From Methanolinea sp. (GTDB lineage: Archaea > Halobacteriota > Methanomicrobia > Methanomicrobiales > Methanospirillaceae): a DNA stretch of 64,000 nt. This document shows, piece by piece, positions 3,074-37,130 of this stretch (its first letter is position 1; each line of letters begins with the position of its first letter). Both the position numbers and the translations under genes were made by a program. The stretch lies in assembly GCA_024518585.1 (NCBI GenBank), contig JANIHI010000013.1, positions 1 through 64,000 on the forward strand, written 5' to 3'. The notes beneath the pieces are model-generated. The model worked only from the letters and a program-made list of their open reading frames with translations, did no database searches and had not been told where the DNA came from.

Positions 3074-3295
3074 GGCTTTTCGCAATTTTGAGTGGGGGGA
3101 TAGAAACCAAGGGGGGGCTGCCTCGCCCTAAACACACCCACATGAGGATAGTTCCGCTGCCCCAAAACGGCGCGCCAATGGCGGTTTCACCATCCATTTC
3201 TCATTACGTCGATATTTTTTTTGGATTAACCGGCTCAATCCAGCGAGATGCTATAACCTATCCATACAACGACCCACATTAAATGACGAAGAGGG
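3074..3295 (+). mobile_element. Non-autonomous ISL3-derived element (MITE-like), copy 1
   Basis: This 222-bp non-coding element starts with GGCTTTTCGCAATTTTGAGTGGG-type sequence (3074-3096). It ends with a degenerate inverted copy (3273-3295, CCCAC...AAATGACGAAGAGGG). The right end matches the inverted consensus of the left ends at about 18 of 23 positions. The first 115 bp (to 3188, ending GGCGGTTTC) match copies at 4995, 5574 and 35571. The next ~65 bp and the right end match only copy 3. No open reading frame of its own and no clear target duplication were found. Confidence 0.7.
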
Positions 3296-3359
3296 AAAAA
3301 ATAACCAGAGCATTTTGATGAAATGTGACAATGGGACACACCACCGCACATAATACCAA

Positions 3360-4469
3360 TCAGGGAGATTGCGGGATTTCCAGGAGGTAGGATGCCCCAA
3401 GACCTCGCGGTCCCGAACACACACCCCTCCTGAAAAGGAATGTGCACGGGACACCATCATGGCGGATAAAGGACAGTTCGAGCAAATCTGTCTCTTTTGG
3501 TCCCACCACCCGGGAGAGTACCTCACCGAGCCACTGGTGCTGACCCCTGGCGGTAATTTCAAATATGGTATACCTCCTCTCTCCAGGATCGGTGAGCGTT
3601 TTTCCCAGAAATGCGCTTGCGGCACCATTGAGGAAGATGATCTCTCCTGCCGTCGTCAGCTCAAGGTAAAGACAGGATAACGAATCGGCAAGGGCATGGC
3701 ATTGGGAAGTCACAACTTCCAACAGGGGCTCCGCCGCCGCGGATAATGCCCTTGGGAATGCATAGGCAAATATGAGGTCCCGGCCCCCCACATCCCCATG
3801 GGAAAATACGACCGCAGCTGGGACATTTTCTGCCCTCTGGGTCCGAAATACCATGTGCACTGTCATAGTCAAGTGGAGCTTTAACCTCTCTGCAAAAAGG
3901 GACCATTCCTGGGGGGAAAAGAACGGGTCAAGAGAACTCATGGAGAGGAGACGGAGCTCGTCAGGAGAATAACCAAGAATTTTGCCGGCAGATTCGTTCG
4001 CGTAAATAATCCTGCCTCTCACGTCAACCCAGAATATGGGAATACCAGCCTTTTCAACAGAATGGCGGGTGACCTGGAGGGCCCCCTCTTTCTGAAACCT
4101 CTCGACGGCAACCCGTATCTTGTGGATAAGCTCGGTAAACTGGGAACGGGGATCTCCTCCCTTCTGGAGGTAAAAGTCAGCACCATTATTGAGGGCCTCG
4201 ATGACAACGTGCTCCCTGCCTTTTCCCGTGAAGATGATGAAGGGTGTCTGGTCCCCGATACGACGGAGGACCTTTAAGAAAGAAATCCCGTCCATCCCAG
4301 GCATCTCGTAGTCCGAGACTACCACGTCGTAACTGCGTTCCCGCAATCTCTCCAGTGCCTGCTCGGCGGAATAACAGAGATCGACCTTGAGATCCCCGGT
4401 CTTCTCCAGGTAGAGCCGTGAGACGTCCAAGAGTGCGGGTTCGTCATCCACAAAGAGTACGGTGATCAT
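3360..4469 (-). CDS. Response regulator with receiver and two PAS-like domains
   Basis: A cytoplasmic signalling protein of 369 residues. The N-terminal receiver (1-120) has the acidic pair D8-D9, the phospho-acceptor D53 in VVVSDYEMPGMDG, T81 and K103, so it should be phosphorylated by a histidine kinase. A PAS domain (about 130-250, with WVDVRGRIIYANESAGKILGY) and a second PAS-like segment (about 255-365, LELTTAGEIIFLNGAASAFLGK) follow. There is no histidine kinase or DNA-binding domain, a layout common in Methanomicrobiales sensory networks. No kinase gene is adjacent. It stands alone inside the accessory island between element copy 1 and the IS debris, so it may be recently rearranged. 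Confidence 0.9.
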   Translation of the reverse strand: MITVLFVDDEPALLDVSRLYLEKTGDLKVDLCYSAEQALERLRERSYDVVVSDYEMPGMDGISFLKVLRRIGDQTPFIIFTGKGREHVVIEALNNGADFYLQKGGDPRSQFTELIHKIRVAVERFQKEGALQVTRHSVEKAGIPIFWVDVRGRIIYANESAGKILGYSPDELRLLSMSSLDPFFSPQEWSLFAERLKLHLTMTVHMVFRTQRAENVPAAVVFSHGDVGGRDLIFAYAFPRALSAAAEPLLEVVTSQCHALADSLSCLYLELTTAGEIIFLNGAASAFLGKTLTDPGERRYTIFEITARGQHQWLGEVLSRVVGPKETDLLELSFIRHDGVPCTFLFRRGVCSGPRGLGASYLLEIPQSP

Positions 4470-4712
4470 GCATTCGTCTTTATTGGGCCCATTATTCCGA
4501 AAATTCCGGTTTCCTTAAACTTACTTAGGATACCTTCTTCTTGAAATAGGTATTGGGAGTTTTTTGTGATATTCTGACATCTTCTGCCCGTAACTTGTGC
4601 GGGGAATACTCCCCGATGAAAAGACCTCCACCTCCCTTCCTGCAGGAATGCCATCTATATAGCAAAATGAAGTTTATGATCCTTCTCCCTCGAAAAAGTA
4701 CAATGAAAAGAA

Positions 4713-4748
4713 TTCCCCGTATTTTCTCATTTCCCCGTATTTTCTCAT
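4713..4748 (+). repeat. Perfect 18-bp tandem duplication
   Basis: TTCCCCGTATTTTCTCAT occurs twice head to tail (4713-4730 and 4731-4748) in AT-rich non-coding sequence upstream of the response regulator gene. No function is evident. Confidence 0.85.
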
Positions 4749-4790
4749 TTTATCCTTGAAAAAGGCTTATTGTAGGTTCTGCCATCCGGG

Positions 4791-4913
4791 ATCTGGGGAG
4801 CCCCGTATCAGGTCTCGGACTACCGTTGGACACGCGTGGAGGGAGAAAAATACCGGTTCTATGATGGAATCTACATGTATGATCGCATCAAACGGGATTT
4901 GATTTGGACGTGA
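4791..4913 (+). pseudogene. Fragment of an unrecognised coding sequence (C-terminal piece)
   Basis: An open frame without a start codon reads IWGAPYQVSDYRWTRVEG, then EKYRFYDGIYMYDRIKRDLI, and stops at 4911-4913. The aromatic-rich, charged composition looks protein-like, but a stop lies just upstream and no family is recognised. It lies about 80 bases before the IS left end at 4995 and is probably a gene remnant. It could also be a chance open frame. Confidence 0.25.
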
Positions 4914-4994
4914 TGAAAACCTCCCAAATCCCAGGAACTCATGACGGAATCGCTCGATGTCACCCGGTGTTTGGTATTGCGAACAAGGATAAAC

Positions 4995-5108
4995 GGTTCT
5001 TCGCTATTTTGAGTGGGTGATTGGGAACTGAAGTGGGGGCTGGTCGCCCCCACACCCCCACATGAGGATAGACCCGCCGCCCCCGAAGGGCGCCCCGGCG
5101 GCGGTTTC
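4995..5108 (+). mobile_element. ISL3-type insertion sequence left end and leader (copy 2)
   Basis: The left terminal sequence GGTTCTTCGCTATTTTGAGTGGG is followed by the conserved leader. The leader contains a perfect hairpin, GTGGGGGC-TGGTC-GCCCCCAC, and a second GC-rich hairpin ending in GGCGGTTTC. It lies 36 bases upstream of the transposase start at 5145, so this copy shows the repeat is the 5' end of an ISL3-family element. Similar terminal sequences (GGCTCTT...GTGGGT) are known from other ISL3 members. Confidence 0.7.
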
Positions 5109-5144
5109 GTGAGAATAAAAAACCTGGAACATCACAATAATTCT

Positions 5145-5591
5145 ATGGTTGCAGAGATCCAGAGTCAGCTCTTCAGTCAGGCACTGAACATTCAAAAGCC
5201 ATGGTACATCACAAGGATTGAATTCAGGAAGGAAGAAAGGCGACTGGATATCTGGGTTGATTTTGAACGAGGTGCAAGATTTCCATGTCCGGAATGTGGT
5301 GAAGAAGACTGCCCGATACATGATACCATTGAAAAGGAATGGCGACACCTCGACTTTTTCCAGTTCCGAACATACATTCATTGCCGGGTTCCCCGCGTGA
5401 TGTGTGGGAAATGCCGGATCCGACTCATAGAAGTTCCCTGGTCAAGGAAATCAAGTGGATTTACAAGTTTATTTGAGCCTATGATCGTTCTCATGGCTGG
5501 TGACATGCAAATCTCTCAAATCAGTGAGAAAGTCCAGGAGACCGATACCCGGCTCTGGCGAGTTATCAAATATGGCTCTTCACCATTTTGA
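5145..5591 (+). pseudogene. Truncated ISL3-family transposase (N-terminal third)
   Basis: About 144 residues of an ISL3 transposase remain where full-length members have roughly 400. Visible family features are the opening LFSQALNIQKPWYITRIEF and the zinc-binding segment with CPECGEEDCPIHD. These are followed by EWRHLDFFQFRTYIHCRVPR, a CGKC pair and an HTH-like stretch ending DTRLWRVIKYG. The frame then runs into element copy 3 (5574 on) and stops after four foreign residues. The entire DDE catalytic domain is missing, and it does not resume after copy 3. ATG 5145 is chosen because homology starts there; the frame itself opens earlier inside the IS leader. No transposition activity is expected from this copy. 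Confidence 0.82.
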
Positions 5592-5794
5592 GTGGGTGGA
5601 AAGGAACCAAAGTGGGAGCTGCCTTGCCCCCACGCCCCCATGTGAGGATAGTTCTGCTGTCCCCGACGGGGGCGCCGGCGGCGGTTTCACCATTCATTTC
5701 GCATTAAGTCTATATTTTTTTGGATTAACCAGCTCAATCCAGCAAGAGGCTCTGATGCATTTATAAACGAAACCACCTGAAATGACGTGGAGGG
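5574..5794 (+). mobile_element. Non-autonomous ISL3-derived element (MITE-like), copy 3
   Basis: This 221-bp element begins with the cleanest terminal sequence, GGCTCTTCACCATTTTGAGTGGG. It ends in a degenerate inverted end (about 5772-5794, AAATGACGTGGAGGG) shared with copy 1. It directly truncates the ISL3 transposase at codon ~144. The 115-bp core matches the other three copies, and bases 5689-5752 match copy 1 at roughly 80 percent. There is no coding capacity and no clear target-site duplication. Confidence 0.7.
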
Positions 5795-6992: not shown

Positions 6993-7940
6993 ATGCCAGG
7001 GGGATTTTTCTCCGAGTGGATTGGACGCTACCGCCATTACCTCCGGATGCGCAATTACTCCCCCCGGACCATCCAGAGCTACGAGCAGGTTGTAAAGCAC
7101 TTTGCCTACTACGTGTGGCTCCGCCGGAATATCGACCCCCAGAAACTCGTTGTCTACTGGGAAGATTTCTCAAAGGCCCGGCTTGAAACCGACGTCGAGG
7201 TTGACCCCCCCCTCCTCGAAGACTACCTCTCATTCATGAGCTCCATGCGGACGTACAAGGCAAAGACGCTCCACCGGATAATCTCGACTCTCAGCTCTTT
7301 CTACCGGTTCCTCTACTCCCAGGGGGCAGTCTCCACCAACCCCCTCATTGGCGTGGAACGCCCCAAGATCAAGGGGCAGGAATTGCGGTATCTCAAGCAC
7401 AGCCAGGTCATCCGCCTGATCGAATCGATCGAGGACCCAAGGGACCGCCTCATCGTCCGGACGATCTACGCGACCGGAGTCCGCGTATCGGAGTTGTGCG
7501 GCATCAACATCGAGGATATTGATTTTGAAGACGGCACCATACGCGTCAGGGGCAAGGGAGGAAAAATCCGCATCGTCTTTGTCGACCCTGATACCCTGGG
7601 CGAGATGGACCGGTTTATCGGGTCACGCATCGAGGGCCCCCTCTTCCCCGGGCAACAGGGGCACCACATATCGCCACGGTCCGTCCAGCACATATTCCGC
7701 AAGTATGCCCCGGAAGGGATCACACCCCACAAGATACGGCACAGCTATGCCAGTGAGCTGTACCGCCGGTCAAAGAACCTCCGTGTCGTCCAGGAGAACC
7801 TGGGGCACACGTCCATCAAGACGACCGAGATATACCTCCATACCGACCTGGAAGAGAGAAAGAGGGTTTACCAGGAGTACTTCCCCCTTGCAGAGAAAAG
7901 GGAGAAAAAATCTCTTGAAAGGGGCGGAGATTCACAGTAA
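6993..7940 (+). CDS. xerA: XerA-type tyrosine recombinase / integrase
   Basis: The 315-residue protein has an N-terminal SAM-like core-binding domain (about 5-115) and a C-terminal catalytic domain. All catalytic residues are present: R164 (TGVRVSEL), K191 (GKGGK), H247 and R249 (HKIRHSYAS), H272 (GHTS) and the nucleophile Y281 (TEIYLH). XerA resolves chromosome dimers in archaea, and relatives move genetic elements. The length and catalytic spacing fit the single-recombinase Xer type. It lies at the right end of the accessory island, 66 bases from the 26-bp repeat B, whose layout suggests a possible substrate. Whether it is the housekeeping XerA or the island's own recombinase cannot be decided here. 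Confidence 0.9.
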   Translation: MPGGFFSEWIGRYRHYLRMRNYSPRTIQSYEQVVKHFAYYVWLRRNIDPQKLVVYWEDFSKARLETDVEVDPPLLEDYLSFMSSMRTYKAKTLHRIISTLSSFYRFLYSQGAVSTNPLIGVERPKIKGQELRYLKHSQVIRLIESIEDPRDRLIVRTIYATGVRVSELCGINIEDIDFEDGTIRVRGKGGKIRIVFVDPDTLGEMDRFIGSRIEGPLFPGQQGHHISPRSVQHIFRKYAPEGITPHKIRHSYASELYRRSKNLRVVQENLGHTSIKTTEIYLHTDLEERKRVYQEYFPLAEKREKKSLERGGDSQ

Positions 7941-35489: not shown

Positions 35490-35570
35490 GGGTATGTCCC
35501 TCTTTTTTCCCGACTATTATCTTTCATCCTGCAGGTGACCGGTGCACTATCTATTTTTTTAGATTTTCGC

Positions 35571-35674
35571 TATTTTGGGTGGGTGCATAGGAACCAAAGT
35601 GAGAGATGCCTCGCCTCCACACCCCACTGGAGGATAGTTCCGCTGCCCCAAAAGGGCGCCCCAGAGGCGGTTTC
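35571..35674 (+). mobile_element. Solitary ISL3-type left end and leader (copy 4)
   Basis: About 104 bases match the 115-bp core of copies 1-3: ATTTTCGCTATTTTGGGTGGG at the left, GGAACCAAAG, the GAGGATAG landmark, and GGCGGTTTC at the right end. Both hairpins are partly decayed. No transposase follows; instead the repeat ends where a different inverted-repeat element begins (35674). It lies in the convergent gap after the Cys-rich winged-helix gene and thiC. Confidence 0.65.
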
Positions 35675-35803
35675 AGTGACTGTACACAATGACTGCCGAA
35701 GATCTTGTTTCGAGGTATTAATGTCTGAAAGTTCCACTGGAACTAGTGCTTAACCTGATGAACATCATTCGTTTTTTTTTCTATGGGGAGTGTACAGTGA
35801 CTG
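35674..35803 (+). mobile_element. 130-bp element with 14-bp terminal inverted repeats
   Basis: CAGTGACTGTACAC (35674-35687) and GTGTACAGTGACTG (35790-35803) are inverted copies matching at 13 of 14 positions and enclose 102 bases. The interior has no coding frame and a run of nine T (35772-35780). This looks like a tiny non-autonomous transposon or a large imperfect operator/attachment structure. It abuts IS end copy 4 exactly. Only one copy is seen in the window. Confidence 0.5.
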
Positions 35804-35855
35804 TGCAGGATCCGAGTTTCGTATTTCCAGTACACCCCCTTTTTAAAAAATGTGT

Positions 35856-37130
35856 TCAGAAGGAGAAGTGCCTGTTTACAATCTTCAACGCACAGTAATC
35901 CCCGCACATCGTGCAGGCATCCGCATCGGCAGGCATCCTCTCCTGCCTGATCTTTCGTGCCCTCTCGGGGTTCATCGCGAGCTGGAACTGGCGTTCCCAG
36001 TCGAGGTCCCGGCGGGCATGCCCCATCTCGAGGTCCGCCTCCCTCTTTTTCAGCTTGATCATGTCACCGACGTGGGCGGCGATGCGTGAACTAATGACGC
36101 CTTCAAAGACCTCCTCAGGGGTTGGCAGGGCCAGGTGTTCGGAAGGCGTGACGTAGCAGATGAAGTCGGCACCGTAGCCCGAGGAGAGAGCGGCCCCGAT
36201 GGCCGCGACGCGGTCGTCGTACCCGGGTGCGATATCGGTCACGAGCGGGCCGAGCATGTAAAAGGGCTTGCGGTTACTGACTCTTTTTTGAAGGATGACA
36301 TTTGCCTGGATTTCGTCGATGGGGATATGGCCCGGCCCCTCCACAATCACCTGGACACCTTCCGCATGGGCCTTGTCCGCGAGCTCTGCATTGATGAGGA
36401 GCTCCTGGATTTGGGCCCGGTCGGTCGCGTCATGGACGGCACCGGCCCTCATGCCGTTGCCCATTGAGAGCGTGACCTCGTGCTCCTTCATAATCTCGAG
36501 GAGGTAATCAAACTCCGAGTAGAGGGGATTTTCCTTCTCGTTGTGGATCATCCACGCCGTCATGAAGGCCCCTCCCCGCGAGACGAGCCCGCCATGCCTC
36601 CCCTGGTTCCGGAGGCGCTTGAGCGTTTCCCAGTTTATGCCGGTATGGATGGCCATGAAGTTGGTCCCGAGCTTTGCCTGCTCGGCCGTTATGCGGAAGA
36701 GGTCATCTTCCTTCATGTGGACAACGGCCCCGTCCTTGCGGGCAGCCTCGATGAAGGCCTGGTAGAGTGGCACGCTCCCGACAGAGAGCGACGTGGACGC
36801 AATGACCCGCTTCCTGATCTCGACTAAGTCACCGCCGGTCGAGAGCTCCATCAGCGTGTCAGCTCCCGCCCGCTCGGCCTGGCGGGCCTTCTCAACCTCC
36901 ATATCGATGTCAACGATATCGGTCGATGTCCCAATGGACGCGTTCACCTTTGTACGCAGCCCCTCGCCGATTCCACAGATCTTCACTTTGCGGTACGGAG
37001 AGACCGGAATGACGATATGGCCCCCGGCGATACCCCGGCGGACAAAATCCTCGGTCACCCCTTCCTGCCGGGCCACGATTCTCATCTCTTGTGTGATCCT
37101 CCCGGCACGGGCATCTTCGACAAGACTCAT
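35856..37130 (-). CDS. thiC: Phosphomethylpyrimidine synthase (ThiC)
   Basis: This radical SAM enzyme converts aminoimidazole ribotide to hydroxymethylpyrimidine phosphate for thiamin synthesis. The 424-residue protein shows [56 protein letters not shown] and [11 protein letters not shown]. The C-terminal cluster motif reads CTMCGDYC. Its CX2CX3C spacing is one residue shorter than the CX2CX4C of bacterial ThiC, as in short archaeal ThiC. ATG 37130 ([10 protein letters not shown]) is preferred over one eight codons upstream. TTTTTATCTT about 25 bases before it suggests a nearly leaderless transcript. No TPP riboswitch motif is visible; a 15-bp palindrome lies upstream at 37194. Confidence 0.95.

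What the first reader, a model, noticed from the sequence alone, without database searches (positions are those of the whole stretch)
3074..5794. Family of structured ISL3-derived ends: MITEs and a transposase leader that may encode an RNA
A 104-115 bp sequence occurs at 3074, 4995, 5574 and 35571, always in the same orientation. Copy 2 sits between the IS terminus and an ISL3 transposase start, so the repeat is the 5' leader of an ISL3 element. Copies 1 and 3 extend to 221-222 bp and end in degenerate inverted termini, so they look like MITEs. The leader can fold into an outer GAAACC/GGTTTC stem enclosing two GC-rich hairpins; the perfect stem GTGGGGGC/GCCCCCAC in copy 2 is partly kept in copy 3. 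Conservation of a non-coding, foldable leader is unusual for a DDE-type IS. It could be a transposon-encoded regulatory or guide-like RNA, by analogy with RNAs in IS110 and IS200/605 ends. The RNA function is speculative.
Basis: partly seen in the sequence, partly recalled or inferred. Interest (0 to 1): 0.7.

Follow-up and report, generated by a model that had tools for sequence, protein, structure and literature searches.

The report
ISL3 transposon ends with shared hairpins
The repeats are the left end of an ISL3-type jumping gene and short non-coding copies of it, scattered through a methane-making archaeon. Their two GC-rich hairpins are a module also carried by other, unrelated short transposons in the same archaeal family, and nothing found here shows that they make an RNA.

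Summary
The four window copies belong to a family with about 35 matches in this Methanolinea-like genome. Copies 1 and 3 are 222- and 221-bp MITEs with ISL3-type 22-bp inverted ends. Five sister copies have perfect 8-bp target duplications. Copy 2 is the left end of a truncated ISL3 element.

The RNA reading is not supported:
- The hairpins lie upstream of a TATA-like box about 30 bp before the transposase start, so they are probably outside its mRNA.
- Stem substitutions in this genome's copies look neutral: 1 compensatory change, about 1.9 expected.
- G·U does not exceed A·C in relatives (16 against 18).
- Rfam has no match.
- Other intact ISL3 elements have a 46-bp leader with no hairpins.

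What is unusual is the 76-nt double-hairpin core. It occurs in 71 of 108 family (Methanoregulaceae) genomes. It sits inside ISL3-type MITEs and inside MITEs with different, IS5-like ends. Its second hairpin also sits in an element with a third type of end. Outside this genome its stems do show compensatory changes. Between ISL3 elements whose transposases are 78% identical, the hairpins are 95–100% identical.

I take it as a palindromic DNA module carried by several MITE families. It may insulate the ISL3 transposase promoter from read-through transcription; that role is untested.

The parts
3074..3295 (+). Copy 1: 222-bp ISL3-type MITE (left end 3076-3097, right end 3272-3293, core 3112-3188)
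4995..5573 (+). Copy 2: left end of a truncated ISL3 element (left terminal repeat 4997-5018, then hairpins, promoter-like box and transposase start)
5033..5053 (+). Hairpin 1 of copy 2, GTGGGGGC TGGTC GCCCCCAC
5074..5104 (+). Hairpin 2 of copy 2, CCGCCGCCCCCGAAGGGCGCCCCGGCGGCGG; almost invariant across genera
5032..5108 (+). 76-nt double-hairpin core in copy 2 (covariance model R1, 91.4 bits)
5113..5124 (+). TATA-like box GAATAAAAAACC about 30 bp before the transposase ATG, downstream of both hairpins
5145..5573 (+). ISL3 transposase, N-terminal part only (zinc ribbon and HTH), cut off at copy 3
5574..5794 (+). Copy 3: 221-bp ISL3-type MITE abutting the truncated transposase (core 5611-5688)
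35562..35679 (+). Copy 4: ISL3-type left end with degraded hairpins (core 35598-35674) and a different tail (type D), no recognisable right end

Best explanation
The repeats are the left end of an ISL3-family insertion sequence and MITEs moved in trans by its DDE transposase, which recognises the 22-bp ends and makes 8-bp duplications, mostly in A/T-rich DNA (shown by ends, duplications and intact relatives). The two hairpins are a palindromic DNA module of the Methanoregulaceae. The module is also carried by MITEs with IS5-like ends, and hairpin 2 by an element with a third type of end (shown). In autonomous ISL3 elements it lies between the terminus and the predicted transposase promoter, so it is probably not in the transposase mRNA (inferred from the TATA-like box). 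Its most likely role there is to shield the transposase promoter and start from transcription running in from neighbouring genes, by folding in the read-through RNA or as a DNA hairpin (inferred, untested). In MITEs it is a passenger that decays.
For: Ends and 8-bp duplications. Transposase family. Origin by internal deletion in a relative: the G006 MITE joins the leader to the transposase C-terminus and right end. TATA-like box downstream of the hairpins. Unrelated GC double hairpins occupy the same place in another ISL3 clade, with few copies outside the ISL3 leader. Window against G010: hairpins 95-100% identical, transposase 78%, promoter region 46%. Neutral decay in MITEs. Same core inside MITEs with ends TGCTCTGTAGAAA and 8-bp duplications. 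Hairpin 2 inside an element with ends GGGTATAGTG/CACTATACC and duplication ATTTTTTT.
Against: Short-leader ISL3 elements with intact duplications lack the hairpins, so a shield is not needed in general. Archaeal termination depends on U-tracts and aCPSF1 (title and abstract of PMC8716108), not on hairpins, and the core has no T-run. Carriage by IS5-type MITEs does not follow from a role in ISL3. Hairpin identity could reflect sequence homogenisation between copies rather than selection.
Confidence: 0.55

Rival explanations
1. The hairpins have no role in ISL3. They are a passenger palindromic repeat, spread by several transposon families and kept alike by recent copying and sequence homogenisation.
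For: The core occurs in MITEs with unrelated ends. ISL3 elements without it are intact. Stems in this genome's MITEs decay neutrally. Target duplications are A/T-rich (about 83-88% A/T against 42% A/T in the window), which by itself would favour intergenic 3' ends.
Against: A second, unrelated GC double hairpin sits in the same place in another ISL3 clade. Compensatory changes outside this genome (26 double changes against 0.4 expected in copies without ISL3 ends; they recur in several genera) argue that pairing is kept.
Confidence: 0.3
2. The leader encodes a transposon RNA (regulatory, or guide-like as in IS110 or IS200/IS605).
For: Conserved foldable non-coding segment next to a transposase; compensatory changes across genomes; an outer stem above chance.
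Against: Promoter-like box downstream of the hairpins. No conserved promoter-like box in the left terminus upstream of them: CTATTTTG becomes CTAATCTG or CTATCTGG. G·U does not exceed A·C. Fold energies are mostly no better than shuffles (z -0.6 to -2.1, one copy +0.9). No Rfam match. Hairpins absent from other intact ISL3 elements. The transposase is a DDE enzyme with its own zinc ribbon and HTH.
Confidence: 0.06
3. The hairpins are DNA binding sites for the transposase or a host factor at the left end, needed in cis for transposition.
For: All ISL3-linked copies found keep the core 35-48 nt from the left end while their right parts vary. Hairpin 2 is almost invariant.
Against: Copies were found by searching for the core, so its constant presence is partly ascertainment. 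Short-leader ISL3 elements transpose without it. Two left ends in this genome, L350 and L351, lack a recognisable hairpin 2.
Confidence: 0.08
4. The core is a host REP-like repeat with a function at gene 3' ends, captured by transposons.
For: In other genomes (ISL3-linked copies included in the count) intergenic copies are mostly between convergent genes or codirectional: 56 convergent, 61 codirectional, 15 divergent. Core-bearing genomes have no RAYT-type spreader but many copies.
Against: Many copies are TIR-bounded (ISL3 or IS5-like ends on at least one side in 144 of 226 distinct copies), and A/T-rich target preference can explain the 3'-end bias. Y1 transposase in 1 of 17 genomes.
Confidence: 0.1

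Closest known systems
ISL3 family insertion sequences
   Same: DDE_Tnp_ISL3, Zn_ribbon_ISL3 and HTH_Tnp_ISL3 domains; ends starting GGCTCTTC (PMC9782665 reports GGGTCTTCGGA ends and an 8-bp duplication for an ISL3-transposase transposon); 8-bp target duplications
   Different: Some members here carry a double GC hairpin before the promoter; the transposase stop codon overlaps the right terminal repeat
Prokaryotic MITEs (review PMC10969869)
   Same: Short, multicopy, non-coding, terminal inverted repeats, A/T-rich targets, foldable, derived from an IS
   Different: GC-rich core rather than the AT-rich type the review calls typical; one core shared by MITEs with different ends
REP/BIME palindromic repeats
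   Same: Short GC palindromes, many copies, bias to convergent intergenic regions
   Different: Often inside TIR-bounded elements; no associated Y1 (RAYT) transposase
IS110 bridge RNA (PMC11208160)
   Same: Structured non-coding segment next to the transposase gene
   Different: DDE zinc-ribbon transposase with inverted ends and 8-bp duplications; no evidence of a transcript or of guide-like loops

Membership tests
ISL3 insertion sequence | Transposase with ISL3 zinc ribbon, HTH and DDE domains | tested here: met
   Window N-terminal fragment: zinc ribbon and HTH. Intact relative L091: all three
ISL3 insertion sequence | GGCTCTTC-type inverted ends and 8-bp target duplications | tested here: met
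ISL3 insertion sequence | Complete, intact element in the window | tested here: not met
   Transposase ends at 5573, no remainder downstream
MITE | Multicopy non-coding element with TIRs and target duplications matching an autonomous IS | tested here: met
   The right half of the own-genome type A MITE was not traced to an IS
Transposon-encoded structured RNA | Compensatory base changes with RNA-type G·U tolerance | tested here: not met
   Compensatory changes exist outside this genome but G·U equals A·C; none in excess within this genome
Transposon-encoded structured RNA | Transcript from the segment | not testable with these tools
   No RNA-seq available; promoter-like box lies downstream
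IS110 or IS200/IS605 RNA-guided element | IS110 recombinase, Y1 transposase or TnpB partner | tested here: not met
   Partner is an ISL3 DDE transposase; Y1_Tnp not found in the own genome. TnpB was not searched
REP/RAYT system | Y1 (RAYT) transposase in genomes with many copies | tested here: not met
   1 of 17 genomes

The most novel reading that the evidence does not exclude
A 76-nt double-hairpin module is exchanged between MITEs of unrelated transposon families (ISL3, IS5-like, and a third with GGGTATAGTG ends) across the Methanoregulaceae, and is kept paired because it gives its carrier an advantage, such as transcriptional insulation at gene 3' ends or upstream of transposase promoters.
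Probability: 0.3. Interest if true: 0.6.

Novelty: new member of a known kind. Interest (0 to 1): 0.35.

Why it matters
It accounts for one of the commonest repeats of Methanoregulaceae genomes and removes a candidate guide RNA from a DDE transposon family. If the shared module proves functional, it would show MITEs of different transposases carrying the same small structural cassette, which could be tested with simple reporter constructs in a cultured relative.

Tried and rejected
Rfam at gathering and at E<=1: no match. Single-sequence folding: not convincingly better than shuffles. An alternative stem between the left terminal repeat and CCCCCACATGAGGATAG looked attractive in the minimum-energy fold but the two sides do not change together between species (read from the rows). 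An early reading of L054 as a compensated stem was wrong on recount (its hairpin 1 has an A·C mismatch). RAYT-driven spread: rejected. Viral carriage: no exact match to the hairpin-2 pattern in viral contigs. A reading frame open through copy 2 in frame with the transposase was not taken as coding, because indels that are not multiples of three are common among copies.

Full report
What is there. The window is part of a 1.78-Mb assembly of a Methanolinea-like archaeon; its near relatives in the scan are Methanolinea and Methanoregula species of the family Methanoregulaceae. The repeat is real. Window copies match each other at E down to 1e-44, and the genome holds 35 matches, 18 on one strand and 17 on the other.

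Ends and target duplications. Aligning the copies with their flanks gives a left end GGCTCTTCGCTATTTTGAGTGGGT and a right end that reads CCCTCTTCGTCATTTCAAGTGGGT on the other strand, with perfect 8-bp duplications in five copies (ATATTTAG, TGAATTTC, TTTATTTT, TATAATCC, TAAAAATA). The end pattern gives 51 hits in the genome and none for a reversed control. Copies 1 and 3 are therefore MITEs of 222 and 221 bp. Copy 2 is the left end of an ISL3 element whose transposase carries the ISL3 zinc ribbon and HTH and is cut off at residue ~148 where copy 3 starts. Copy 4 has an ISL3-type left end but a different tail. Full ISL3 elements with 8-bp duplications exist in relatives: L091 TCCAGATT, L097 ATCAAATA, L100 AAATAATC, L227 GATTATCT, L092 ACTTTTTG. 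In those with an intact frame the stop codon overlaps or adjoins the right end. A MITE of G006 joins the leader to the transposase C-terminus and right end, so it arose by internal deletion.

Leaders of ISL3 elements. Among transposase-bearing relatives some have about 46 bp between end and start with no hairpins. One group has the window-type double hairpin (window, L239, L224, L225, and L119 by its leader). Another clade has an unrelated GC double hairpin in the same place (L226, L242, L238), and L229 has GC-rich hairpin-like sequence there too. G037 has a 111-bp AT-rich leader. The second type is found almost only in ISL3 leaders. In the long-leader elements the best TATA-like box lies 28-34 bp before the start codon, downstream of the hairpins, in seven of eight (L229 at -19; in L226 a -29 box ties with one nearer the start); the best is TTTTATATAAT in L242. 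This rests on a simple consensus and few lineages, but it predicts a nearly leaderless mRNA that excludes the hairpins.

The core as a wider repeat. A pattern scan of genome contigs found the double hairpin almost only in Methanoregulaceae. A covariance model of the 76-nt core finds it in 71 of 108 Methanoregulaceae genomes. Across a 150-genome sample of the order, 24 genomes match, and only one of them lies outside the family. Of 226 distinct copies examined, 74 have ISL3-type ends on one or both sides and 70 have IS5-like ends (GCTCTGTAGAAA) on one or both sides, against few control hits. The IS5-like elements have perfect 8-bp duplications in several cases, e.g. CGGATAAT, AATTTTCT, TTTTTTTC, and one apparently autonomous 1,005-bp relative with these ends carries a frameshifted DDE_Tnp_1 transposase and no core. 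Hairpin 2 alone also sits in an element with GGGTATAGTG/CACTATACC ends and duplication ATTTTTTT. The module is thus shared by elements with at least three kinds of ends.

Is the fold maintained, and as RNA? In this genome's 27 distinct copies, stem cells show 52 one-sided changes and 1 compensatory change (about 1.9 expected if independent); in the 222-bp MITEs hairpins are no more conserved than the rest (0.22 against 0.15 mean pairwise difference). Elsewhere there are 26 compensatory cells in copies without ISL3 ends (0.4 expected) and 3 in other ISL3-linked copies (0.2 expected), and the changes recur in several genera. These are cell counts, not independent events, and a few of the doubles are in weak, partly mis-aligned copies. 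G·U does not exceed A·C outside this genome (16 to 18 and 6 to 5); within it the difference is not significant (23 to 13, p=0.13). Pairing therefore seems to be kept in many copies but without the sign expected of RNA. In transposase-bearing elements hairpin 2 is 100% and hairpin 1 95% identical between window and G010 while the transposase is 78% identical; selection and homogenisation would both do this. An outer GAACC/GGTTC stem is above chance.

Mechanism. The mobility is that of an ISL3 DDE element and its MITEs. For the hairpins I favour insulation of the transposase promoter from read-through, by analogy with known shielding of IS10-type transposase genes (my own knowledge, not tested here), with a pure passenger as the close rival. 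A guide or regulatory RNA is unlikely on present evidence but only transcript data can close the question.

Limits. Copies were found through the core, so core-less MITEs are under-counted; two core-poor left ends exist in this genome (L350, L351). Gene context used simple ORF calls. No expression data were available.

Noticed in passing
L284:46-1050 (G105): An apparently autonomous 1,005-bp IS with TGCTCTGTAGAAA ends, 8-bp duplication AAATTTTT and a DDE_Tnp_1 transposase split over two overlapping frames (IS5-like; subgroup not tested).
   Followed up: partly
L047:1390-1686 (G008) and L049 (G026): MITE-like elements with GGGTATAGTG/CACTATACC ends and an ATTTTTTT duplication (L047) that contain hairpin 2 without hairpin 1.
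   Followed up: partly
L081, L083, L085, L090, L352 and window 35562-35900, L084, L088, L353: Two recurrent tails (types C and D) follow the ISL3 left end in this genome instead of the usual MITE right half; only L088 keeps a right ISL3 end. Their origin is unexplained.
   Followed up: no
L145, L159, L202: Cores with an extra 30-75 nt inside the hairpin 2 loop while the outer stem is kept.
   Followed up: no
window 6993-7940: Open frame that looks like a tyrosine recombinase (XerA-like by eye), close to the MITE cluster; not searched.
   Followed up: no
G000 contig C18 end and C25 start: Contigs break inside the ISL3 transposase (left part at C18 end, right part at C25 start), so an intact copy may be hidden in an assembly gap.
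   Followed up: partly
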